Source of the DNA: Rubrobacter xylanophilus
GTDB lineage: Bacteria > Actinomycetota > Rubrobacteria > Rubrobacterales > Rubrobacteraceae
DNA: 64,000 nucleotides
Direction: 5' to 3'
Assembly: GCF_007164525.1 (NCBI RefSeq)
Contig: NZ_AP019791.1
Span: 1,041,501-1,105,500 of the forward strand
The notes beneath the pieces are model-generated. The model made no database searches and was not told where the DNA came from. It saw only the letters and a list, made by a program, of their open reading frames with translations. Within the stretch, counting starts at the first letter, position 1; each line of letters begins with the position of its first letter. Position numbers and translations under genes: made by a program. Shown piece by piece: positions 7,435-25,974 of the stretch.

Positions 7435-9042
7435 CTAGAATCCCAGCGCCCGGGAGAGCTCCCGGGAACGGATCATCTCCACCACCCGGCGGATGTCCTC
7501 CTCCATCCGCCGGTCCCCGTCGAGGAAGGACACCCGCTCGCGCACCATCCGGTGGGCCTCCCGCGTCCTCGGGGACATCTCCTGTCTTCCCCGCAGGTCC
7601 AACGCCTGACAGACGGCGATGAGGTGGATGGCGGCCACGTTCTGCACGAGCTCCACGATGGTCCTGGCGTCCCGCGCCGCTATGGTCCCCATGCTGACCT
7701 TGTCCTGGTTGTGGGCCTCGGTGGAGCGGGAGTGGACGCTCACCGGGTTCGAGAGCTTGCAGGCCTCGGCGACCAGGGAGGAGCAGGCGAGCTGCATCCC
7801 CTTGAAGCCGTGATGCAACCCCGCCCGCGGATCGTCCGGGTCGAAACGGGGGATGAGGTTGGGCGTGAGACCGTTGTTGAACTTCTCGTCCACCACGAGC
7901 TCCAGCTGCCGGTCCATCAGGTCGGCGACGCTGGCGAGCGCCACCTTAAGGGAGTCCATGGCCTGCACGATGTGCCCGCCGTAGAAGTTGCCCCCGCTGT
8001 GGACGGTGCGCCCTTCCGCGTCGAAGAGCGGGTTGTCGTCGGAGGAGTTGATCTCGACCTCCACCCACCGCCGGACCCAATCGAGGGTGTCCCTGAGCAC
8101 CCCGTTTACGTGCGGCGCGCAGCGGATGGAGTATTTGTCCTGGATGTTGCGCTCGAGCTCCCTGTAGCCTCTCCCCCCGAGGCCGTCGCCGGAGAGTACC
8201 TGATCTATCTCCGTGGAGAGCCCCGAACCCTCCAGCAGCTCCCGGATGACGCGCGCGCTCTCCGCCTGCCCCGGATGCGGCTTGTTCTCGTGGATGAACG
8301 GGTGGAAGTGCGCCCGGTTGCCGAGCAGCGCCTCGGAGGCCATCGCGGTGCACAGGTCGCAGACGAAGGCCACCTCCTCGGCATCCCACACTGCGAGCAC
8401 AGCGAAAGCGCTCATGAAGGAGGTGCCGTTGGTCAGCGCGAGCCCCTCCTTGGCCTCGAGCTCCACGGGCTCGAGCCCCAGCTCCTCCATAACCTCCCCG
8501 ACGGGACGCCAATCCCCGCGGTGGAGCACCTCGCCGTGGCCGGTGAGCGCGGAGCCCACATAAGAGAGCGGGACGAGATCCCCGCTCGCCCCGCACGATC
8601 CCCGCTCCGGAATGGGCGGTAGCAGGTCGTGGTTTATGAACGCCAGCAGCAGCTCCACGAGCTCCCGACGAACCCCGGAGTTGCCCCGGGCCAGACAGTT
8701 GGCCCGCAGCAGCATGGTCGCCCGCACGACCTCGGGAGGCGCCAGCGGCCCCACTCCGTTGCCGAGGAAACGCAAGATGTTCTTCTGTAGCTCGGCGGTC
8801 TTCCCTGCGGAGATCTGACGGTGCGCACTATCCCCGAAGCCCGTGGTGACCCCGTAGATGGGCCGCCCGGAGGAGATCAACTCCCGCTTCAGCCCGTTGG
8901 TCTCCTCTACACCGCGGATCGCCCCGCCGGATAGTACACACTCGCCGGAGCCCCCCCGCGCTACAGTAACTACATCTTCCAACCCCAGCGAACGACCGTC
9001 CAGCTCCAGCCTGTAACCAGACACAGGTAAGGTCTCACTCAT
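7435..9042 (-). CDS. Aromatic amino acid ammonia-lyase (MIO family), Phe-type pair
   Basis: A 535-residue HAL/PAL/TAL-family lyase. The MIO cofactor triad Ala-Ser-Gly is at 152-154 in GSCGASGDLVPLSYVG, and the catalytic Tyr63 is in YGVTTGFGD. The substrate-selectivity pair, at RFLGNGVG (Phe92-Leu93), is F-L, as in phenylalanine-specific enzymes. HAL normally has S-H and TAL H-L. It would deaminate L-phenylalanine to trans-cinnamate plus ammonia. The ATG at 9042 aligns with family N-termini, and the frame runs 30 codons further upstream without similarity. First gene of a five-gene operon with CoA ligase, thiolase, SDR and hydrolase. Selectivity is inferred from two residues. Confidence 0.85.
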   Translation of the reverse strand: MSETLPVSGYRLELDGRSLGLEDVVTVARGGSGECVLSGGAIRGVEETNGLKRELISSGRPIYGVTTGFGDSAHRQISAGKTAELQKNILRFLGNGVGPLAPPEVVRATMLLRANCLARGNSGVRRELVELLLAFINHDLLPPIPERGSCGASGDLVPLSYVGSALTGHGEVLHRGDWRPVGEVMEELGLEPVELEAKEGLALTNGTSFMSAFAVLAVWDAEEVAFVCDLCTAMASEALLGNRAHFHPFIHENKPHPGQAESARVIRELLEGSGLSTEIDQVLSGDGLGGRGYRELERNIQDKYSIRCAPHVNGVLRDTLDWVRRWVEVEINSSDDNPLFDAEGRTVHSGGNFYGGHIVQAMDSLKVALASVADLMDRQLELVVDEKFNNGLTPNLIPRFDPDDPRAGLHHGFKGMQLACSSLVAEACKLSNPVSVHSRSTEAHNQDKVSMGTIAARDARTIVELVQNVAAIHLIAVCQALDLRGRQEMSPRTREAHRMVRERVSFLDGDRRMEEDIRRVVEMIRSRELSRALGF

Positions 9043-9088
9043 ACCTATCACCCCTTCGTTTCCCCAAGACACCCTGTATCGGGAAGTG

Positions 9089-9102
9089 TTTGACCGGTTA
9101 GT
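9089..9102. promoter_or_regulatory. Operator-like pseudopalindrome upstream of the ammonia-lyase operon
   Basis: TTTGACCGGTTAGT lies 47-60 bp before the lyase start. It matches 7 of 10 defined positions of the ACYGNNCGNNCRGT pattern also seen at the paaA, ALDH and paaH/crotonase promoters. The flanking sequence contains CAGTTTAA and GATACA-like elements but no convincing sigma-A pair. Confidence 0.4.
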
Positions 9103-9141
9103 CAGTTTAACAGATCGGGGCGCTGCCGGCAAGCGGGGTGG

Positions 9142-16248: not shown

Positions 16249-16920
16249 TCAGGCGCAGTCCTCCCGGGAGGACCACTTCCCCTCCCGTCCGTCGCCGGAG
16301 GTCAGGTAGGAGAGCACCGCCCGTTCGCAGAGGCTCCGGTAGCGGGCGTGGGTCTTCTCCCAGTCCCGCTCCAGTACCCACTGGATGAACAGCCCGTCGA
16401 TGAGGGCCCGGACCACGGTCGCGGCCTCCCGGGTCTCGCCCACCCGGAAGACCCCCTCCTCTTTGCCGAGCCGGACCACCTCCTCGTACAGGCCGGTCAC
16501 GATCTCCTGGAAGGTCGCCCCCACGTCCCCGAAGCGGTCCGTGCGGGCGGCGTGCCCCAGGAAGTCGAAGAAGACCAGGTAGAAGCTGCGGTTGGAGACG
16601 GGGTCTATGAAGATCGCATCCACCATCGCCGAGACCTTCTCCTCGGCCCCCTCCGCCCGGGACATGGCCTCCCGGATGCGCCGGGCCACCCGGGCGAGCA
16701 CCCAGCGCATGGTCGTGACCATCAGGTTCTCCTTGGAGGCGAAGTAGTAGGGTAGGATGGCCTTGCTGACCCCGGCCTCGTCGGCGACGTCCTGCAGGGA
16801 GAGGTTGTTCATCCCTTTCTCGCCCATGACCTTGTAGGCGCTGCGCACGAGGCGCTCCTGCTTGGGCGGCAGCGCCTCGACCTCGAGCGCGGCCGGAGCG
16901 AAGCCCTTGCCCCGCTCCAT
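16249..16920 (-). CDS. TetR-family transcriptional regulator
   Basis: A 223-residue TetR protein. The N-terminal HTH runs through SLQDVADEAGVSKAILPYYFASKENLM (residues ~40-66), followed by an all-helical ligand domain. It begins 2 bp after the stop of the enoyl-CoA hydratase and is therefore the last gene of the paa operon. It is the best local candidate for the repressor that binds the shared ACYGNNCGNNCRGT sites, including the one inside the paaA promoter, probably released by an aryl-CoA. That link is inference from position. Confidence 0.85.
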   Translation of the reverse strand: MERGKGFAPAALEVEALPPKQERLVRSAYKVMGEKGMNNLSLQDVADEAGVSKAILPYYFASKENLMVTTMRWVLARVARRIREAMSRAEGAEEKVSAMVDAIFIDPVSNRSFYLVFFDFLGHAARTDRFGDVGATFQEIVTGLYEEVVRLGKEEGVFRVGETREAATVVRALIDGLFIQWVLERDWEKTHARYRSLCERAVLSYLTSGDGREGKWSSREDCA

Positions 16921-16922
16921 CT

Positions 16923-17699
16923 CTAGCCCCGCCTCCCGAACTCGGGCCTGCGCTTCTCGGTGAACGCCCTTATGCCTTCCTGCGCATCCGGGCTCTCGAA
17001 GAGCCCCTCGATGAGCTCCCGCTCCAGCGCGAGCCCCTCCTCCAGAGACCGCTCGATCCCCTCGTGCACCGCGCGCTTTATCTTGCCGATGGCCTCGGAG
17101 GCCCCGCGCGCCAACCCCTCGGCGTACTGGCGGGTGCGCTCCTCGAGCTCCCCGGCCGGGAAGAGGCGGTCCAGGATGCCGAGCTCGTGGGCCTCGGCGG
17201 GCGAGAGCCTGCGCCCGGTGACCATGAGATCCAGGGCCCGGCTCCGGCCGATGAGGCGCGGCAGGCGCTGGGTCCCGCCGTTGCCGGGCAGCAGCCCGAG
17301 CGTGACCTCCGGCAGCCCCAGGTAGTACTCGCCCTCGGCCCCGAAGCGCAGGTCGCAGGCGAGCGCGATCTCCAGCCCCCCGCCCAGGGCGGTGCCGGAG
17401 ATCTGGGCGATGAACACCTTGGGCACCTCCGCTATCCGGGCCAGGTTCCGGTGGGCCTCCCGGATCATGCGCATGTTCTCCTCGGTGGTCGAGGCCGCGA
17501 AGGCCTTCACGTCGGCCCCGGCCGAGAAGAAGCGCTCGTTGGCGCTGCGCAGGACGACCGCCCCGGCCCCCGCGTCCTCCTCGGCCGCCCGGACGGCCTC
17601 CCCCAGTTCGCGCATGAACTCGTAGTCGTAGCTGTTGGCCGGGGGCCTGTCCAGGGTGATGTACCCGACGACCCCCTCCCGGTCGTAGCTGACCGCCAT
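16923..17699 (-). CDS. Enoyl-CoA hydratase/isomerase
   Basis: A 258-residue crotonase. The oxyanion hole is RFFSAGADVKAF, the first catalytic Glu is in GTALGGGLEIALACD and the second is in GLPEVTLGLLPGNGGTQRL, so both hydratase glutamates are kept. The start at ATG 17699 is chosen because similarity begins there. The reading frame continues over 130 codons upstream only as a shadow of the ALDH. It lies in the paa operon after an aldehyde dehydrogenase and would act as a PaaF/PaaG-like hydratase or isomerase on ring-opened CoA esters. Confidence 0.88.
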   Translation of the reverse strand: MAVSYDREGVVGYITLDRPPANSYDYEFMRELGEAVRAAEEDAGAGAVVLRSANERFFSAGADVKAFAASTTEENMRMIREAHRNLARIAEVPKVFIAQISGTALGGGLEIALACDLRFGAEGEYYLGLPEVTLGLLPGNGGTQRLPRLIGRSRALDLMVTGRRLSPAEAHELGILDRLFPAGELEERTRQYAEGLARGASEAIGKIKRAVHEGIERSLEEGLALERELIEGLFESPDAQEGIRAFTEKRRPEFGRRG

Positions 17700-17716
17700 G
17701 TGGGATCCCCCCTCCG

Positions 17717-19162
17717 CTAGTCCAGTCCTCCTATGACAACCGACTTGCTCTCGAGATAATACTCCAGGGCCTCCGGCCCGTGCTCGCGGCCTACGCCGGA
17801 ATCCTTCACGCCGCCGAAGGGCAGCTCGTCGTAGCCGTAGTGCAGCTGGTTGACCCACGTCATCCCGGCCTCTATCTCCTGGGCGGCACGATGGATCCAG
17901 CGGATGTTCCGGGTCCAGATGGAGGAGCCGAGCCCGTAGCGGGAGTCGTTGGCGAGCCGCAGGGCCTCGTCGAGATCCCCGACCCGGAAGACCGGAAGCA
18001 GCGGCCCGAAGGTCTCCTCGCGCACCACCCGGCTGTCGTGCGGAGCCCCCTCGATGACCGTCGGCGGGAAGAAGTACCCCTTCTCGCCGCTCCACTCGCC
18101 CTGGTAGACGACCTCAGCTCCCCGGCTCACCGCCTCCTCCAGCTGGGAGGAGACCTGATCCCGGTAGCGGGCGCTGTTCATCGGGCCCATCCTTATCTTG
18201 GGCTTCTCGGCCTTCGTGAGCCCATCACCGAGCTCGTAGCGGGAGACCCGCCTGATCAAGCCCTCCATGAACTCGTCGTAGACCTCCTCGAAGACGTAGA
18301 CCCGCTTGGCCGCGAGGCACGCCTGCCCCGCGTTGAAGAACCGCCCGATGTTCACCCCCTTGACGGCGGCGTCCACGTCGGCGTCGGGGCAGACGATGAC
18401 CGGGTCCGATCCCCCGAGCTCCACGCTCACCCGCTTGAACCGCGGGCCGGCGAGCTCCATGATCCTGCGCCCCACCTCGGTCGAGCCGGTAAAGGCCACC
18501 CGGCGCACGTCCGGGTGCGCCACGAGCGCCTCGCCGACCTCGGGCCCCTCGCCCGTCACCACGTTGAACACCCCGGCCGGGAGCCCGGCCTCGGCGAAGA
18601 GCTCAGCGACCCTGAGGGTGGCCAGCGGGGTGGTCTCCGCCGGCTTGACGACCACGGTGTTCCCCCCCGCGAGCGCCGGCCCGACCTTGGTCCCCATGAG
18701 GGTGAGCGGGAAGTTGAACGGCACGATCGCCGCGCACACCCCCACCGGGCGCTTTATGACCATCCCGTAGCTCCTGCCCAGGCTGGAGGGCAACGGAGCG
18801 TAGGCGCCCCGGATCTTGCTCGCCAGATCGGCGTAGAAGTCCATGCCGTGAATGAAGTGGTGCAGCTCGCCCATGGCCTCGGAGAGGGGCTTGCCCTGCT
18901 CCCGCACGAGCAACTCGGCGATCTCACGCCCCCGCTCCTTCACGGCCGCGATGCCGGCCCGCATGATAGCGGCCCGCTCGTCGGGATCTTTACCGGACCA
19001 CTCCGCGAGCGCGCCCTTCGCAGCGGCGACCGCCGCCTCCGCGTCCTCGGCGGTACCCTTGGGAACGGTGTCTATGACCTCCTCGGTGGCGGGGTTGACG
19101 ACCGGCATCTCCCCGCCGCTCTTTGCCGAGACCCGCTCGCCACCTACGAGAAGCTGAGCCAT
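17717..19162 (-). CDS. NAD(P)-dependent aldehyde dehydrogenase
   Basis: A 481-residue ALDH. Landmarks are IVPFNFPLTLMGTKVGPAL, the nucleotide-fold FTGSTEVG, the general-base Glu in VSVELGGSDPV and the nucleophile Cys in FFNAGQACLAAKR. It lacks the C-terminal MaoC-like hydratase domain of PaaZ, so it is not a full PaaZ. Similar to the ALDH at 25974-27419, probably an ancient paralogue. ATG at 19162 lies 1 bp after the stop of the preceding hexapeptide gene. In the paa operon it may oxidise a semialdehyde from ring cleavage. Confidence 0.88.
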   Translation of the reverse strand: MAQLLVGGERVSAKSGGEMPVVNPATEEVIDTVPKGTAEDAEAAVAAAKGALAEWSGKDPDERAAIMRAGIAAVKERGREIAELLVREQGKPLSEAMGELHHFIHGMDFYADLASKIRGAYAPLPSSLGRSYGMVIKRPVGVCAAIVPFNFPLTLMGTKVGPALAGGNTVVVKPAETTPLATLRVAELFAEAGLPAGVFNVVTGEGPEVGEALVAHPDVRRVAFTGSTEVGRRIMELAGPRFKRVSVELGGSDPVIVCPDADVDAAVKGVNIGRFFNAGQACLAAKRVYVFEEVYDEFMEGLIRRVSRYELGDGLTKAEKPKIRMGPMNSARYRDQVSSQLEEAVSRGAEVVYQGEWSGEKGYFFPPTVIEGAPHDSRVVREETFGPLLPVFRVGDLDEALRLANDSRYGLGSSIWTRNIRWIHRAAQEIEAGMTWVNQLHYGYDELPFGGVKDSGVGREHGPEALEYYLESKSVVIGGLD

Positions 19163-19163
19163 A

Positions 19164-19715
19164 TCACATCCCTCCCTTCCCGGGTTCGCCCGCGAGGGCC
19201 CCGAGCTCTCTGATGTACCTGAGGCGCAGCGCCCGGTACTCCCGGGCCGCACCCTCTACCCAGTCCCCGGAGCTACCGCCGAGCTCCTTCTTCACCCGGG
19301 CGGGCACCCCGGCGGCGAGTACCCCGGCGGGGATCTCCTGCCCCTCGCGCACCACGGTGCCCGCCGCGAGCATCGCCCGGGCGCCGACCCGGGCCCGCTG
19401 CAGAACCACCGCGCCCATCCCAACCAGCGCCCCATCCTCGACGGTGCAGCCCTCCAGCATCGCCATGTGCCCCACGGTGACCCCGGAACCCACCAGCGTC
19501 GGCCGGTCCTCCGCGGTGTGGATCACGCAGTTGTCCTGCACCGCGCTCCCGCGCCCGATGACGATGCGGTTGAAGTCCGCGCGCAGCACCGCACCGAACC
19601 AGATGCTGGCCTCCTCCTCGATGACCACGTCCCCGATGAGCACCGCCGTCGGGGCGACGAAGGCCCCGGGGGCCACCTGCGGCTCTTTCCCTTCGAACGG
19701 GTAGAGGTATGCCAT
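19164..19715 (-). CDS. paaY: Gamma-carbonic-anhydrase-like hexapeptide protein, PaaY type
   Basis: A 183-residue left-handed beta-helix protein of hexapeptide repeats. The zinc-type histidines are visible in NCVIHTAEDRP and VTVGHMAML. The third position, usually a His in a LHGC motif, is Glu here (MAMLEGC), so metal binding may be changed or lost. PaaY proteins occur in many phenylacetate clusters as thioesterase-like accessories. The ATG at 19713-19715 overlaps the zinc-ribbon stop by one base. Confidence 0.75.
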   Translation of the reverse strand: MAYLYPFEGKEPQVAPGAFVAPTAVLIGDVVIEEEASIWFGAVLRADFNRIVIGRGSAVQDNCVIHTAEDRPTLVGSGVTVGHMAMLEGCTVEDGALVGMGAVVLQRARVGARAMLAAGTVVREGQEIPAGVLAAGVPARVKKELGGSSGDWVEGAAREYRALRLRYIRELGALAGEPGKGGM

Positions 19716-19837
19716 TACTTGCGGATCGCCTCGAAGGGGTTGTGGCAGTCCCGGCAGATGTACTGCGAGACCATGAGGTGCGGCCCGAACTCGGCGACCT
19801 TCTCCACCTCCCCGGAGCCGCACCAGGGACAGCTCAC
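19715..19837 (-). CDS. Stand-alone PaaD-type C-terminal zinc ribbon (40 aa)
   Basis: A 40-residue ORF read VSCPWCGSGEVEKVAEFGPH to its midpoint and ending DCHNPFEAIRK. Four cysteines form CPWC and CRDC knuckles. The pattern (CPxCGS, E, FG, xYxCxxC, PFE) is that of the C-terminal zinc ribbon of full-length PaaD, whose N-terminal MIP18/DUF59 domain is encoded separately at 21072-21377. The GTG at 19837 overlaps the paaC stop (GTGA), and an adjacent GTG at 19840 is an alternative. GGGGGAGAGGA lies upstream. Together with the short PaaD it would support metal-centre maturation or folding of the PaaA oxygenase. Confidence 0.8.
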   Translation of the reverse strand: MSCPWCGSGEVEKVAEFGPHLMVSQYICRDCHNPFEAIRK

Positions 19838-20667
19838 CACACGGTCCTCTCCCCCTTCTCCTCCAGCCGGCGCTGCAGCCGGTTCCATCTCTCCCACGGC
19901 AGCTCTCCATACTCCCATCGCTTCTCGCCCTCCTCCCATCTGACGGGCAACCGTACCCCCGCCTCCTCGAGCGGCGGCACTACGCGGCTCAGGTACTCCT
20001 GCCGCATCTGCTCGTTGCCCATGGAGACGAGCCCTTCCCTCCTGAGGGCCTCGATGCCGCCCTCGCCCTCCGGGCCGAACCACAAGAGCATCTCGGGCAA
20101 CAGCTCGTCCACCCGCTCCTGCAGGCGCTCCCGGCCGCGCCCGACCCCGCACAGCTGGCGCACGAGCCCCTCGGCGTAGGTGGCGGTGAGCCGCTCCTCC
20201 TCCAGGATCCGGCGCGCCCGCCGGGCGAGCGCCTCGTAGCGTGAGCCGGAGACCGCCCCGAGCACCACGTCCACCCCCGGGCTCACGAGCGCGAGCGCCG
20301 CCACCACGTGCGACCAGCTGGGGAAGGGCTCGTCCAGGAAGCTCACGCAGTAGCGCCGCCGCCGGTCGGTCTCGTCCCTCAGACCGGCCGGCGGGTTTGG
20401 CCAGGGCAGCTCCTCGAGCAGCGGGTAGAGGGCCCGCGAGTGGCCGAGCTTGTCCTGAGCTATGGCCGCGCAGGCCACCGAGGTCTCCAGCAGCGGGGCG
20501 GCGTCGGCCCACTCGGAGACCCTGCGCCCCAGAAAGTACTCGTTGTCCGCCAGCACGGCGATGATGTTGACGAGGGCCGCGAGCGCCTCGTCGTCCCCGA
20601 CCGAGAACTCCCCCAGCGAGCTGCGGGCCGGGGCGACCTCCTCGGTCCCTTCGAACCTCTCGTTCAT
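19834..20667 (-). CDS. paaC: Phenylacetyl-CoA epoxidase structural subunit PaaC
   Basis: A 277-residue helical protein of the PaaA/PaaC fold. Similarity to PaaC is clear from LADNEYFLGRRVSEWADAAP and IAQDKLGHSRALYPLLEELPW. PaaC lacks a di-iron centre in characterised systems and pairs with PaaA as a structural subunit. ATG at 20667 overlaps the stop of the second paaB-like gene by 4 bp. The longer upstream frame is a shadow. Part of the paaA-D-B-B-C operon. Confidence 0.9.
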   Translation of the reverse strand: MNERFEGTEEVAPARSSLGEFSVGDDEALAALVNIIAVLADNEYFLGRRVSEWADAAPLLETSVACAAIAQDKLGHSRALYPLLEELPWPNPPAGLRDETDRRRRYCVSFLDEPFPSWSHVVAALALVSPGVDVVLGAVSGSRYEALARRARRILEEERLTATYAEGLVRQLCGVGRGRERLQERVDELLPEMLLWFGPEGEGGIEALRREGLVSMGNEQMRQEYLSRVVPPLEEAGVRLPVRWEEGEKRWEYGELPWERWNRLQRRLEEKGERTVW

Positions 20668-20867
20668 GCCTCGACCTCCGTCCCGGACTCCTCCCGGATG
20701 GCCCACTCGACCTCGTCCGCCGGGATGAGCACCATCTCGAGCCACTCCCGCCCGAACCGCTCGAGGGCGAGCCTCCTCGCCTCCTCCGCCCCGGGAGCCT
20801 CGAGCGTCCCCCGCTGCTCCAGGGGATCGTCGTAAAGGTTGCGCGCGAAGACCATGTACTCCGGCAT
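20664..20867 (-). CDS. Second PaaB-like small protein (67 aa)
   Basis: A 67-residue protein beginning MPEYMVFARNLYDDPLEQRG, with a EEARRLALERF helix and a C-terminal IPADEVEWAIREE. Its layout (Y-x-VF start, a Gly-Thr strand, an A/E-rich helix, then a V/I-P-x-x-x-V strand) parallels the preceding PaaB-like gene 12 bp upstream, so the two look like tandem paralogues. No separate function can be read. It may be a second bridging subunit or a variant forming a heteromeric PaaB layer. Confidence 0.7.
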   Translation of the reverse strand: MPEYMVFARNLYDDPLEQRGTLEAPGAEEARRLALERFGREWLEMVLIPADEVEWAIREESGTEVEA

Positions 20868-20879
20868 CCTCTCCCCCCG

Positions 20880-21071
20880 CTACTCCGGGTCTATGACCCG
20901 GACGATGGCCCGCTCGGGTACCACGAACATCTCCTTCCAGCGCCACTCATCGTACATGAGGCGGGCGTAGACGGCCGCCTCCTCGGGGCTGGAGGCCCGC
21001 ACGTTGCCGTTGTGCCTGAGGGGATGTCCGGGCCGGGCGGTGAACACCTCGTAGTTCTCGAGCCGCTGCAC
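20880..21071 (-). CDS. paaB: Phenylacetyl-CoA epoxidase subunit PaaB (63 aa)
   Basis: A 63-residue PaaB-like protein. YEVFTARPGHPLRHNGNV at residue 7 matches the PaaB core (YEVFVRxxxGLxHxHVGS), followed by ASSPEEAAVYARLMYDE and FVVPERAIVRV. Shorter than the usual ~95 residues, mostly at the C-terminus. GTG at 21071 follows the paaD stop with no gap. In the complex PaaB bridges PaaAC dimers. Confidence 0.85.
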   Translation of the reverse strand: MQRLENYEVFTARPGHPLRHNGNVRASSPEEAAVYARLMYDEWRWKEMFVVPERAIVRVIDPE

Positions 21072-21377
21072 CTAGACCACCCCGACCTCGCGCAGCTTCT
21101 TCCGGCCGAGCGGGGTTATGTCCCTCCGCGACCAGGAATCCCAGACCACCTCGATGTCCACCTCCCCCACATCCTCCATCCGCAGGAGCCGCTCCCGGAT
21201 GTCGTCCTGGATCATGTCCATCGCCGGACACCCCATGCAGGTGTAGGTGAGCTTTATCCGGACGATCTCCCCCTCCACCTCGATGCCCCTTATGAGCCCG
21301 AGATCTACGAGGCTTATGGGGTACTCGGGGTCGAGCACCTCCCGCAGGGCGTCCCGAACCTCCTCCACACCAGGCAT
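21072..21377 (-). CDS. paaD: PaaD N-terminal (MIP18/DUF59) protein, short form
   Basis: A 101-residue DUF59 domain protein. LDPEYPISLVDLGLIRGIEV and LTYTCMGCPAMDMIQDDI carry the family residues including the CxxCPA cysteines. Canonical PaaD continues with a C-terminal zinc ribbon. Here the protein stops after ITPLGRKKLREVGVV and the ribbon is a separate gene downstream of paaC. ATG at 21377 shares one base with the paaA stop (TGATG). Probable metal-centre assembly factor for the epoxidase. Confidence 0.88.
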   Translation of the reverse strand: MPGVEEVRDALREVLDPEYPISLVDLGLIRGIEVEGEIVRIKLTYTCMGCPAMDMIQDDIRERLLRMEDVGEVDIEVVWDSWSRRDITPLGRKKLREVGVV

Positions 21378-22327
21378 CAGGCCGCCGCCCCCGCGCCGTA
21401 GAGCTCCTTGTAACCGCGCTGCAGGTGCTCGACGAACTCCTCGTTCTTGGGCCCGCGCGCCTTCCAGCGCCTGAGCACCTCGTCCCAGCCTATCTGACCC
21501 TCCTCGAAGAGCCACCGCTTCTCCTCGGCGTCGAAGCGCGCCGGAAACGGACAGTCTATGACGTAGCGGCCCTGCTCCTCGTCGTAGTGGGCCGGCACCT
21601 CAAGCCCCAGCGACTCGCACAGCGGCACCGTGGAAGACATCCAGGTCTGCCGGAGCTGGTCGTTGGTGGAGCCCTTGTAGCCGTACTCTATCTGCTCGTT
21701 GTGGCGCTTTTTGTCGTCGGGGAGCCCGAACCACTCGAGCGTGAGCACGAACATCCAGTCGACCGCCCGCTGCAGCTCCCGCTTTTTCTCCGGGTCCTGC
21801 GAGAGCACCCGCATCCACTTCTCCCCGTGCCGCAGGTGGAAGTTCTCCTCCCGATCCACCTTCACCAAAGCCCGCTTCCACGGCCCGTAGGAGCAGTTGC
21901 GGTGGATGTCCGAGAGCAGCACGAACCCCGCCCGATCGTAGAAGCCGTTGGCCACCACCAGCTCGGTGAAGCTCTCCAGCGGCACGTCGAAGGCGTAGGG
22001 ATGCTTGAACTGGTGCGGCTCGCGCCCGTAGACGAGCTCCTCGGTGTCCACCCCGAGATCGCGGAGCATCCGGTAGGCGATGTGCGCGTGCCCCAGCTCG
22101 TCCTGCACGATCCCCATCACCGTGATGTAGTTGTTCACCCCGGGAAGCGTGGAGAAGTCCCGCACCGCATGCATGTACGCCGGAGCGCTTATCAGCTCGG
22201 TGTCCGCCGAGACGATGAGCGTCCGCTTCAGCCCCTCGATGTACCGCTCGGTGGCCTGCTCCGGATCCTCGATGAGCCTCCCGTCCCTGATCCTCTCCAG
22301 AAGTGCTTCCTCGCTTACCGCCGTCAT
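21377..22327 (-). CDS. paaA: Ring-epoxidase catalytic subunit PaaA
   Basis: A 316-residue di-iron oxygenase subunit. The ferritin-like metal motifs are visible: VQDELGHAHIAYRML (ExxH) and VDREENFHLRHGEKW (second ExxH). In known systems PaaABCE epoxidises the aromatic ring of phenylacetyl-CoA. First gene of the operon, driven by a strong promoter containing an operator (22358-22386). No PaaE reductase, PaaK ligase or PaaZ is present in the window, so either they lie elsewhere or the enzyme serves another aryl-CoA. Confidence 0.93.
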   Translation of the reverse strand: MTAVSEEALLERIRDGRLIEDPEQATERYIEGLKRTLIVSADTELISAPAYMHAVRDFSTLPGVNNYITVMGIVQDELGHAHIAYRMLRDLGVDTEELVYGREPHQFKHPYAFDVPLESFTELVVANGFYDRAGFVLLSDIHRNCSYGPWKRALVKVDREENFHLRHGEKWMRVLSQDPEKKRELQRAVDWMFVLTLEWFGLPDDKKRHNEQIEYGYKGSTNDQLRQTWMSSTVPLCESLGLEVPAHYDEEQGRYVIDCPFPARFDAEEKRWLFEEGQIGWDEVLRRWKARGPKNEEFVEHLQRGYKELYGAGAAA

Positions 22328-22357: not shown

Positions 22358-22386
22358 AATATAACTGACCGGACAGTCAAAGTCAA
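22358..22386 (-). promoter_or_regulatory. paaA promoter with embedded operator
   Basis: Reverse strand: TTGACT (-35, 22386-22381), a 17-bp spacer and TATATT (-10, 22363-22358), 31 bp before the paaA ATG. The spacer contains ACTGTCCGGTCAGT (22377-22364), an imperfect palindrome with two mismatched positions. A repressor bound there would exclude RNA polymerase. Confidence 0.75.
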
Positions 22387-23264
22387 CTCCCTTCCTCGAG
22401 CCTGCGGCGGGTGCTTTCGGGGAAGCGGTAGACGCGCAGGGCGTTTTTCCAGAAGATGTGGTGCAGGGTTTCGCGGTCCAGGCCGAGGTTGCGGACGGCA
22501 TCGGCGTTGGCGCGGGGTCCGGGGACGCCGGGCCAGTCGGTACCGAAGATCATCTTTCTCGCCAGCCGCTGCAGGTCGTAATTCTTGTAGTAATCGGGCA
22601 GTTTCTTCGGGGGCAGTCCGGAGATCTCGATCCAGACGTTCTCGCGCATCAGGGTCAGGAAGGCGGCGGCGTCGTACCACCAGCCGCGCCCGCCGTGAGC
22701 GAGGACGATGGTGAGGCTCGGGAAGTCGCGGGCGACGTCCTCGATGAGGGCGGGGTCGGCGTAGCGGTTGGTGGAGCCGGGGAAGACGCTCGTGCCGCAG
22801 TGGAAGACCACGGGTATGCCCTCGGCCTCGCAGAAGGCGTAGACCGGGTAGAGCATCCGGTCGTTGGGGGCGAAGGAGCCGTGGACCGGGTGCAGCTTCA
22901 GGCCCACGGCGCCGAAGGAGAGCTGGCGCTTCAGTTCGGCCACGGGGGGGTAGTGGTAGTGGGGGTTCAGGTTCGCCATCGGGAGGAAGCGCTCGGGGTT
23001 ATGCTCCAGGATCGGGAAGAGATCCTCGATGGGCTGGATGCCGGTGGCCTTCGGGCTGTACTCGCAGAAGAGCACCGCCACGTCCACGCCCTCCCCCTCC
23101 ATGTAGCGGTCGAAGCGTTCCGGGACGAGGGTGCCCTCCTGGTCGTAGAGCTCCTTCATGGAGGGGGAGCCGTAGCGCGCGGCCCAGTCCTTCCAGGACT
23201 CCTTGAGGGTGGGCAGTCGGGCGGCGTGGACGTGGGCGTCTATGAGCGGGATGCCGTCGAGCAA
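22383..23264 (-). CDS. TIM-barrel amidohydrolase (amidohydrolase-2 family)
   Basis: A 293-residue metal-dependent hydrolase. DAHVHAARLP (HxH) is at the N-terminus, KLHPVHG near residue 130, VFHCG, LAHGGRG and the terminal acid in FGTDWPGVPG, the pattern of ACMSD / 2-pyrone-dicarboxylate-type hydrolases and decarboxylases. Last gene of the ALDH-ligase-alcohol dehydrogenase operon, 4 bp after the preceding stop. Its stop coincides with the -35 region of paaA. Substrate unknown: a carboxylated aromatic or ring-opened lactone are possibilities. Confidence 0.75.
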   Translation of the reverse strand: MLDGIPLIDAHVHAARLPTLKESWKDWAARYGSPSMKELYDQEGTLVPERFDRYMEGEGVDVAVLFCEYSPKATGIQPIEDLFPILEHNPERFLPMANLNPHYHYPPVAELKRQLSFGAVGLKLHPVHGSFAPNDRMLYPVYAFCEAEGIPVVFHCGTSVFPGSTNRYADPALIEDVARDFPSLTIVLAHGGRGWWYDAAAFLTLMRENVWIEISGLPPKKLPDYYKNYDLQRLARKMIFGTDWPGVPGPRANADAVRNLGLDRETLHHIFWKNALRVYRFPESTRRRLEEGS

Positions 23265-24390: not shown

Positions 24391-25974
24391 CTAGACCAGC
24401 TCGTCTTCCTGCCGGGGCACCCGCGCTTCGGGCTCCGGGGTGCGCAGCTTGAAGCGTTGGATCTTGCCGGTGACCGTCTTCGGGAGCTCCTCCACGAACT
24501 CCACCAGGTGCGGGTACTGGTAGCGCTTCAGCCGCTCCTTGCACCAGCCCTGCAGGTCCGCGACCAGAGCCTCCGAGGGCTCGTGCCCCTCGCGGAGCAC
24601 GACGTAGGCCTTTATCCTCGTCAGCCCGCCGACCGGAACCCCCACCGCCGCGGCCTCCATCACCGCGGGGTGCTCGCCCAGGGTGTTCTCCACCTCCACC
24701 GGCGAGACCCACAGGCCACTGACCTTGATCATGTCGTCCGCCCGGCCCTCGTACCAGAAGAAGCCGTCCTCGTCCTGCCGGTACCAGTCCCCGGCAGCGA
24801 GCCACTCCCCCTGCATGGTCTTCTTGGTCTTCTCGTGGTTGCGCCAGTAGTAGGCCGCGGCCGAGTCGCCCTTGACGTACAGGAAGCCGGGCTTCCCCCG
24901 TTCGACGGGCCGCTCGTTCTCGTCCAGCAGCTTCGCCTCGTAGCCGGGCACCGGGATCCCGCTGGAGCCCGGCTTGACCCTCTCGGGGGTGTTGGAGATA
25001 AAGATGTGCAGCATCTCCGTGGAGCCGATGCCGTCCAGGATGACCGACCCGAACGTCTCCTTCCACCGGCGCCAGATGGAGGAGGGAAGCGCCTCGGCCG
25101 CAGAGACGCACAGCCGGATGGAGGAGAGGTCGCGCTCCTCTGCTCCGGGGTGGTTGAGGATCGCGTTGTAGAGCGTCGGCACCGAGAAGAAGAGCGTCGG
25201 CCTGTACCGCTCGATGGTCTCCAGGATCGCCTGCGGCACCGGCTTTCCGGGGTAGAGCACCGTCGAGGCCCCGGCCCAGTACGGGAAGGAGATGTTGTTC
25301 CCGAGGCCGTAGGCGTGGAAGAGCTTGGAGGCCGAGAAGGTTATATCTGATTCTGTGATCCCCAAGACGTTCTTCGCGTAGGTCTCGCAGGTGTAGATGA
25401 TGTCGTGGTGCAGGTGGACGGCCCCCTTGGGCCTGCCGGTCGAACCGGAGCTGTAGAGCCAGAAGGCCGGGTCGTCCCTGTGCGTCTTCGCCGGCGCGAG
25501 CTCGTCCTCCCCGCCCTCGAGCAGCTCCTCGAGCGTCCTCCTGCCCTCGACGCCGCCGTTGGCAACGATGACCTCGACCGGCTCCTCGTAGCCTTCGAGC
25601 CCCTCGCGCACCTTCTCGTGGAGCATCTCGTCCACCACGACGACGCGCGAGCGGCTGTTCTCGACGAAGAAGCGGTACTCGTCCGAGCGAAGCAGGGTGT
25701 TCACCGGGATCGGAACGGCGCCCATCCGCATAGCGCCGAAGAAGGCGACCGGGAAGGAGGGCGTGTCGTTGAGGACGAGCAGCACCCGGTCCTCCGGTCT
25801 CACCCCCAGCTCCCTCAGGGCGTGCCCGAACCTGTTTATGCGCCGGGCGAGCTCGCCGTAGGTCACCTCCTCCTCTCCGCAGCGGATGGCGACCTTCTCC
25901 GCCCGCCCGGCCTCCAGGTTGCGGTCGACCAAAAGGCTCGCGTTGTACCACTCAGGTATCTCTATCATCGCCAT
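24391..25974 (-). CDS. Benzoate-CoA ligase family protein
   Basis: A 527-residue class I adenylate-forming ligase. YSSGSTGRPKGAVHLHHDI is the P-loop motif (about residue 171), FSASKLFHAYGLGNNISFP and GIGSTEMLHIFISN are characteristic of benzoate/aryl-CoA ligases, ADDMIKVSGLWVSPVEVEN is A8, and the catalytic Lys is in LPKTVTGKIQRFKLR. ATG at 25974 shares one base with the ALDH stop (TGATG). The long upstream extension of the frame is non-coding. Predicted to form benzoyl-CoA or a substituted analogue from the acid made by the upstream ALDH. Confidence 0.87.
   Translation of the reverse strand: MAMIEIPEWYNASLLVDRNLEAGRAEKVAIRCGEEEVTYGELARRINRFGHALRELGVRPEDRVLLVLNDTPSFPVAFFGAMRMGAVPIPVNTLLRSDEYRFFVENSRSRVVVVDEMLHEKVREGLEGYEEPVEVIVANGGVEGRRTLEELLEGGEDELAPAKTHRDDPAFWLYSSGSTGRPKGAVHLHHDIIYTCETYAKNVLGITESDITFSASKLFHAYGLGNNISFPYWAGASTVLYPGKPVPQAILETIERYRPTLFFSVPTLYNAILNHPGAEERDLSSIRLCVSAAEALPSSIWRRWKETFGSVILDGIGSTEMLHIFISNTPERVKPGSSGIPVPGYEAKLLDENERPVERGKPGFLYVKGDSAAAYYWRNHEKTKKTMQGEWLAAGDWYRQDEDGFFWYEGRADDMIKVSGLWVSPVEVENTLGEHPAVMEAAAVGVPVGGLTRIKAYVVLREGHEPSEALVADLQGWCKERLKRYQYPHLVEFVEELPKTVTGKIQRFKLRTPEPEARVPRQEDELV

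What the first reader, a model, noticed from the sequence alone, without database searches (positions are those of the whole stretch)
20664..21071. Two tandem PaaB-like subunits
Two consecutive short proteins (63 and 67 residues) share the PaaB outline: Y-x-VF start, Gly strand, Ala/Glu helix, VP/IP strand. Characterised epoxidases have one PaaB. A duplicated, diverged pair could form a hetero-PaaB bridge and change oligomer or substrate specificity.
Basis: partly seen in the sequence, partly recalled or inferred. Interest (0 to 1): 0.6.

Follow-up and report, generated by a model that had tools for sequence, protein, structure and literature searches.

The report
Duplicated bridge subunit in divergent epoxidase
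A heat-loving Rubrobacter carries a distant cousin of the enzyme that attacks aromatic rings in phenylacetate breakdown, and where the known enzyme has one small bridging protein this one has two different ones, a pairing kept intact in relatives as far away as Thermus.

Summary
The 63- and 67-residue genes lie at the stated coordinates inside a tightly packed operon (A-D-B1-B2-C-Zn ribbon-gamma-CA). Single-sequence HMM scores against PaaB are sub-threshold (18.6 and 13.3 bits; cut-off 27). Family profiles, however, link both to PaaB and to each other (94-97% probability; reversed controls about 1% or less), and the best PDB matches of both AlphaFold models are the solved PaaB structures. The pair occurs in all 23 bacterial loci read (Rubrobacteraceae, six other actinobacteria, Thermus plasmids). 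It arose once and early: B2 forms a single clade. Haloarchaeal and Agrobacterium relatives have one B.

The host enzyme is not a canonical phenylacetyl-CoA epoxidase. It belongs to a separate clade (100/100) that keeps the di-iron ligands but has lost the 'lysine bridge' (Lys68/Glu49). Homology searches found no PaaE reductase, PaaK or BoxB in the genome, and a benzoate-CoA ligase lies alongside. I infer a benzoyl-CoA-type epoxidase.

These active-site changes are shared with the single-B relatives, so B2 does not explain the substrate change. A B1-B2 heterodimeric bridge is the best mechanism (about 50%) but is untested. New variant of a known kind.

The parts
20880..21071 (-). B1: PaaB-fold subunit, 63 aa, counterpart of the single B of haloarchaeal relatives
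   Evidence: PF06243 E=0.0023; hhalign 96% to PaaB, 98.8% to haloarchaeal single B; fold match to 3egr and 4iit_B
20664..20867 (-). B2: second, diverged PaaB-fold subunit, 67 aa
   Evidence: PF06243 E=0.1, TIGR04031 E=2e-6; hhalign 94% to PaaB and 97% to B1; fold match to 3egr and 4iit_B
21377..22327 (-). A: PaaA-like di-iron catalytic subunit, divergent clade, lysine bridge lost
   Evidence: PF05138 214 bits; TIGR02156 116 of 280 bits; ligand and Lys68/Glu49 analysis; tree
21072..21377 (-). D: MIP18/PaaD N-terminal-type protein
   Evidence: PF01883 75.6 bits; NF041868 and TIGR02159 below cut-off
19834..20667 (-). C: PaaC-like structural subunit
   Evidence: PF05138 128 bits; TIGR02158 86 of 133 bits
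19715..19837 (-). Zinc ribbon of PaaD type as a separate 40-aa gene
   Evidence: PF23451 53.7 bits, over the cut-off of 27
19164..19715 (-). Gamma-carbonic-anhydrase / PaaY-like protein
   Evidence: NF050158 161.6 and TIGR02287 147.6 bits, both below cut-off
17717..19162 (-). Aldehyde dehydrogenase, conserved neighbour (start estimated from the translation)
16923..17705 (-). Enoyl-CoA hydratase/isomerase, conserved neighbour (start estimated from the translation)
16249..16920 (-). TetR-type regulator, conserved neighbour
22383..23264 (-). Amidohydrolase (PF04909), conserved neighbour
24391..25971 (-). Benzoate-CoA ligase family protein, conserved neighbour (start estimated from the translation)
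   Evidence: TIGR02262 609 bits, cut-off 375

Best explanation
B1 and B2 are two paralogous PaaB-type subunits of a divergent PaaA/PaaC-type di-iron aryl-CoA monooxygenase (shown by homology, fold and operon). B1 is the counterpart of the ordinary single B. B2 comes from one old duplication in the bacterial branch of this clade (shown by trees, within their resolution). The mechanism I think most likely (inferred): B1 and B2 pair as a heterodimer that takes the place of the PaaB homodimer and joins two A-C heterodimers, giving an asymmetric bridge; the complex epoxidises the ring of benzoyl-CoA or a near relative, with electrons from a ferredoxin-type donor instead of PaaE.
For: Homology and fold of both proteins. 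Pair present in all 23 bacterial loci read, across Actinomycetota and Thermus, including an unannotated copy in Thermus pHB5018c. Close packing with overlapping or nearly adjacent genes, which suggests coupled translation. Purifying selection on both: median dN/dS 0.15 for B1, 0.33 for B2. Single origin of B2: A tree 99/99, B2 clade 97/95. Canonical PaaB is a dimer joining two PaaA-PaaC lobes (PMC4498308), and one canonical actinobacterial locus (L073) encodes two PaaB domains in one chain. Clade-wide loss of Lys68/Glu49 with all six di-iron ligands kept in the window protein and all but one member. No full-length PaaE match, only lone ferredoxin-type hits; no PaaK over cut-off and no BoxB; benzoate-CoA ligase alongside; 2Fe-2S ferredoxin gene next to the operon in most haloarchaeal relatives.
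Against: No complex was modelled or measured, so heterodimerisation is inference. B2 evolves faster than B1, and in four loci (L016, L017, L018, L020) its helix region looks shortened or proline-rich, which suits a looser partner as well as a bridge half. The acidic charge of B2 is absent or weak in Thermus (-3.4 and -0.3), so simple charge complementarity is not the rule. The substrate is read from neighbouring genes only, and the electron donor in bacteria is not identified.
Confidence: 0.5

Rival explanations
1. B1 alone forms the usual homodimeric bridge, and B2 is an accessory or coupling subunit that docks elsewhere, for example near the concave surface where PaaE is thought to bind in the canonical complex, helping a ferredoxin deliver electrons or gating the active site.
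For: B1 is closest to the single B that suffices in haloarchaea; B2 evolves faster and tolerates change in its helix; no PaaE found; gels of the canonical complex gave 3-4 B per two A (PMC4498308), so extra B sites are conceivable.
Against: The single-B relatives also lack the lysine bridge, so B2 is not needed for that kind of electron supply. B2 keeps the PaaB fold.
Confidence: 0.27
2. B1 and B2 each form homodimers, giving two alternative complexes with different properties.
For: Both keep the PaaB fold.
Against: They are encoded side by side in one operon in every locus read, a fixed arrangement that suggests joint use.
Confidence: 0.1
3. B2 is a relic or regulatory by-product of duplication without a subunit role.
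For: Faster evolution and helix loss in four loci.
Against: Kept intact in 23 of 23 bacterial loci over deep divergence, with dN/dS well below 1.
Confidence: 0.05
4. The operon is an ordinary phenylacetyl-CoA epoxidase that merely has two PaaB genes.
For: PaaA/PaaC family membership, PaaY-like and PaaD-like neighbours.
Against: Scores under all epoxidase equivalog cut-offs, separate clade, lysine bridge lost, no PaaE or PaaK; the six non-Rubrobacteraceae hosts carry a second, canonical-like PaaA besides it.
Confidence: 0.08

Closest known systems
1,2-phenylacetyl-CoA epoxidase PaaABC(D)E (E. coli, Klebsiella; PDB 3PW1, 4IIT)
   Same: PaaA- and PaaC-like subunits, all six di-iron ligands and Lys103/Lys214/Asn218, PaaB-fold small subunit, PaaD-like MIP18 and zinc-ribbon domains, PaaY-like neighbour.
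   Different: Two B subunits instead of one, both lacking the C-terminal ~30 residues of PaaB; no lysine bridge; no PaaE found; PaaD split in two genes; benzoate-CoA ligase instead of PaaK; about 30% identity in A.
Single-B members of the same clade on haloarchaeal plasmids (Haladaptatus, Haloterrigena, Halalkalicoccus; 47-56% identity in A)
   Same: Same A-D-B-C order, short B, lysine bridge lost, benzoate-CoA-ligase-like gene near in most.
   Different: One B only; a 2Fe-2S ferredoxin gene sits next to the operon in most.
Benzoyl-CoA 2,3-epoxidase BoxAB
   Same: Inferred substrate type and aryl-CoA epoxidation chemistry.
   Different: No BoxB match in this genome; subunit make-up is Paa-like.
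TIGR04031 'Htur_1727 family rSAM-partnered candidate RiPP'
   Same: Best NCBIfam match of both B1 and B2; a member scores above the Pfam PaaB cut-off.
   Different: The member looked at stands next to radical-SAM genes, not in an epoxidase operon.

Membership tests
PaaB (PF06243 / TIGR02157) | Score above the curated Pfam cut-off | tested here: not met
   18.6 and 13.3 bits against 27; genome-wide PF06243 search finds nothing at E<=0.001
PaaB (PF06243 / TIGR02157) | Homology at profile level | tested here: met
   94-96% probability, reversed controls 0.07-1.0%
PaaB (PF06243 / TIGR02157) | PaaB fold | tested here: met
   Top Foldseek hits 3egr_A, 3egr_B, 4iit_B, probability 1.00
PaaB (PF06243 / TIGR02157) | C-terminal ~30-residue tail of canonical PaaB | tested here: not met
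   Both proteins end soon after the third strand
PaaB (PF06243 / TIGR02157) | Dimer bridging two PaaA-PaaC heterodimers | not testable with these tools
   No complex prediction was available
Phenylacetyl-CoA epoxidase (TIGR02156/TIGR02158) | Equivalog cut-offs for A and C | tested here: not met
   116/280 and 86/133 bits
Phenylacetyl-CoA epoxidase (TIGR02156/TIGR02158) | Di-iron ligands Glu42, Glu72, His75, Asp126, Glu155, His158 in A | tested here: met
   Conserved in the window protein
Phenylacetyl-CoA epoxidase (TIGR02156/TIGR02158) | Lysine bridge Lys68 with Glu49 | tested here: not met
   Ile and Tyr here; replaced in every member of the clade, kept in every canonical sequence aligned
Phenylacetyl-CoA epoxidase (TIGR02156/TIGR02158) | PaaE reductase in the genome | tested here: not met
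   TIGR02160: only two ferredoxin-domain hits of 59-61 bits, cut-off 421
Benzoyl-CoA epoxidase BoxB (TIGR03225) | BoxB match | tested here: not met
   No match in the genome
Benzoyl-CoA epoxidase BoxB (TIGR03225) | Activity on benzoyl-CoA | not testable with these tools
   Inferred from the benzoate-CoA ligase neighbour only

The most novel reading that the evidence does not exclude
An obligate B1-B2 heterodimer forms an asymmetric bridge in a benzoyl-CoA epoxidase built on the PaaABC plan, which uses neither the lysine bridge nor a PaaE reductase; the two active sites of the complex would then be inequivalent.
Probability: 0.3. Interest if true: 0.65.

Novelty: new variant of a known kind. 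Interest (0 to 1): 0.5.

Why it matters
It marks out a branch of the PaaA/PaaC epoxidases for which I found no name, spread over Rubrobacteraceae, other actinobacteria, Thermus plasmids, haloarchaeal plasmids and Agrobacterium, that lacks the lysine bridge proposed for electron transfer. It supplies a natural test of what PaaB does: two clearly different PaaB paralogues kept together for a long time, beside sister systems with one B. If the benzoyl-CoA assignment holds, it would be a second type of aerobic benzoyl-CoA epoxidase besides BoxAB.

Tried and rejected
Single-sequence phmmer of B1 and B2 against the PDB found no PaaB; the profile and fold routes were needed. Charge complementarity as a general pairing code was rejected because Thermus B2 is near neutral. 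The idea that B2 caused the substrate shift was rejected because single-B relatives share the A-subunit changes. A recent tandem duplication was rejected: B1 and B2 share only 32% over 37 residues, and B2 forms an old separate clade. No paper on a two-PaaB epoxidase or on this Rubrobacter cluster was found in the library; the library lacks most subscription papers.

Full report
Setting. The window is G000:C1:1041501-1105500 of a 3.02 Mb genome; its closest named kin are Rubrobacter species. On the minus strand lies a compact operon: A (21377-22327), D (21072-21377), B1 (20880-21071), B2 (20664-20867), C (19834-20667), a 40-residue zinc ribbon (19715-19837) and a gamma-carbonic-anhydrase-like gene (19164-19715). 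Most neighbours overlap by a few bases or abut; B1 and B2 are 12 bp apart. This suggests coupled translation and similar supply of all subunits (inference).

Are the two really PaaB-like? I collected 23 B1, 23 B2 and 29 canonical PaaB sequences and compared profiles: B1-PaaB 96.2%, B2-PaaB 94.3%, B1-B2 97.4%; reversed controls 0.07-1.0%. AlphaFold models built from Rubrobacteraceae alignments give strand-strand-helix-strand in both. Against the PDB, the first three hits of both models are the PaaB chains 3egr_B, 3egr_A and 4iit_B (TM 0.72-0.79 for B1, 0.62-0.64 for B2; probability 1.00); everything else is far weaker. Foldseek E-values are modest (best 3e-3), as expected for about 60 residues. 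Both proteins lack the C-terminal tail of canonical PaaB.

Is the pair conserved? In a search of 296 genomes of the phylum, 81 have a PaaA relative; 20 hold a close relative of this A (64-100% identity), namely 14 Rubrobacteraceae (this genome included) and six members of other families. In one the contig ends after A; in the other 19, B1 and B2 follow in the same order. Two further Rubrobacteraceae and two Thermus thermophilus plasmids (A 74% identical) also carry both, giving 23 of 23 loci. In Thermus pHB5018c the B2 gene is not annotated but is present at L056:13417-13632, overlapping the end of B1; in pTF24b it is annotated as a hypothetical protein. Both genes are under purifying selection (median dN/dS 0.15 and 0.33 over Rubrobacteraceae pairs; short genes, so these are rough).

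Relatives with one B. Haloarchaeal plasmids (A 47-56% identical), a Natrialbaceae plasmid and an Agrobacterium plasmid (A 38% each) encode A-D-B-C with one short B. In the A tree the whole group is separated from canonical PaaA at 100/100; the two-B members form one clade at 99/99, and the single-B ones lie outside it. In the B tree all B2 form one clade (97/95) with a long stem, and B1 lies with the single B sequences (only 80 columns, so finer branching is unresolved). The simplest reading is one early gain of B2; loss in the single-B lines is not excluded, since the root inside the clade rests on long branches.

What enzyme is it? A and C hit PF05138 strongly but fall well short of the phenylacetyl-CoA epoxidase equivalog cut-offs. 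Aligned with E. coli PaaA, the window's A keeps the six iron ligands named in PMC4498308, plus Lys103, Lys214 and Asn218, but the lysine-bridge residues Lys68 and Glu49 are replaced: Ile and Tyr here, other residues elsewhere in the clade, while every canonical sequence aligned keeps both. One distant member, L061, shows Gln instead of Glu155 in this alignment. The lysine bridge was suggested to serve electron transfer from PaaE (PMC4498308). Fittingly, the genome has no full PaaE match, only two ferredoxin-domain hits elsewhere, and most haloarchaeal clusters carry a 2Fe-2S ferredoxin gene next to the operon. No PaaK over its cut-off and no BoxB were found. The conserved neighbours include a benzoate-CoA ligase family protein (609 bits, cut-off 375), enoyl-CoA hydratases, aldehyde dehydrogenases and an amidohydrolase. 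An aromatic-amino-acid ammonia-lyase-like gene, a CoA ligase and a thiolase-like gene lie further along the window. A benzoyl-CoA-type substrate is therefore the best guess, resting on gene context alone.

How might two B subunits work? In the Klebsiella complex each PaaB sits in a cleft of one PaaA-PaaC heterodimer, and two PaaB molecules dimerise to join the lobes (PMC4498308, read). The same review quotes PaaA2B3-4C2E1 from SDS-PAGE, so more than two B per complex is conceivable. Two paralogues made side by side suggest a heterodimeric bridge. A parallel exists: a canonical actinobacterial locus (L073) encodes two PaaB domains in one chain, only the second with the C-terminal tail. Against a strict bridge role, B2 evolves faster and its helix region looks shortened or proline-rich in four loci. 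The main rival is that B2 is an accessory subunit. B2 is acidic in all actinobacterial loci read (-6 to -15) but not in Thermus.

What the pair does not explain. The changes in the active site and the benzoate-CoA-ligase context are already present in single-B relatives, so a role of B2 in substrate choice has no support here.

Verdict. Real, conserved and apparently undescribed in the papers I could search; a new variant of a known kind. My estimates: both proteins are PaaB paralogues, about 0.95; hetero-bridge, about 0.5; benzoyl-CoA as substrate, about 0.5.

Noticed in passing
L092:5947-6291 (Halomontanus rarus plasmid): The 'Htur_1727 family rSAM-partnered candidate RiPP' (TIGR04031) scores above the Pfam PaaB cut-off (32.9 vs 27 bits), so this RiPP-labelled family appears to be PaaB-like proteins next to radical-SAM genes.
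   Followed up: partly
L073, open frame from about 1087 (+): A canonical paa locus encodes two PaaB domains fused in one chain; only the second has the C-terminal tail.
   Followed up: partly
window 21072-21377 and 19715-19837: PaaD is split into two genes (MIP18 domain and zinc ribbon) on either side of B1-B2-C; an NCBIfam haloarchaeal model (NF041869) names such a separate zinc ribbon PaaE.
   Followed up: partly
L056:13417-13632: An unannotated B2 gene in Thermus thermophilus plasmid pHB5018c; the zinc ribbon that follows C also lacks its own annotation.
   Followed up: yes
window 7435-9132: Aromatic-amino-acid ammonia-lyase-like gene near an acyl-CoA ligase and a thiolase-like gene; possible phenylalanine-to-benzoyl-CoA feeder route.
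   Followed up: no
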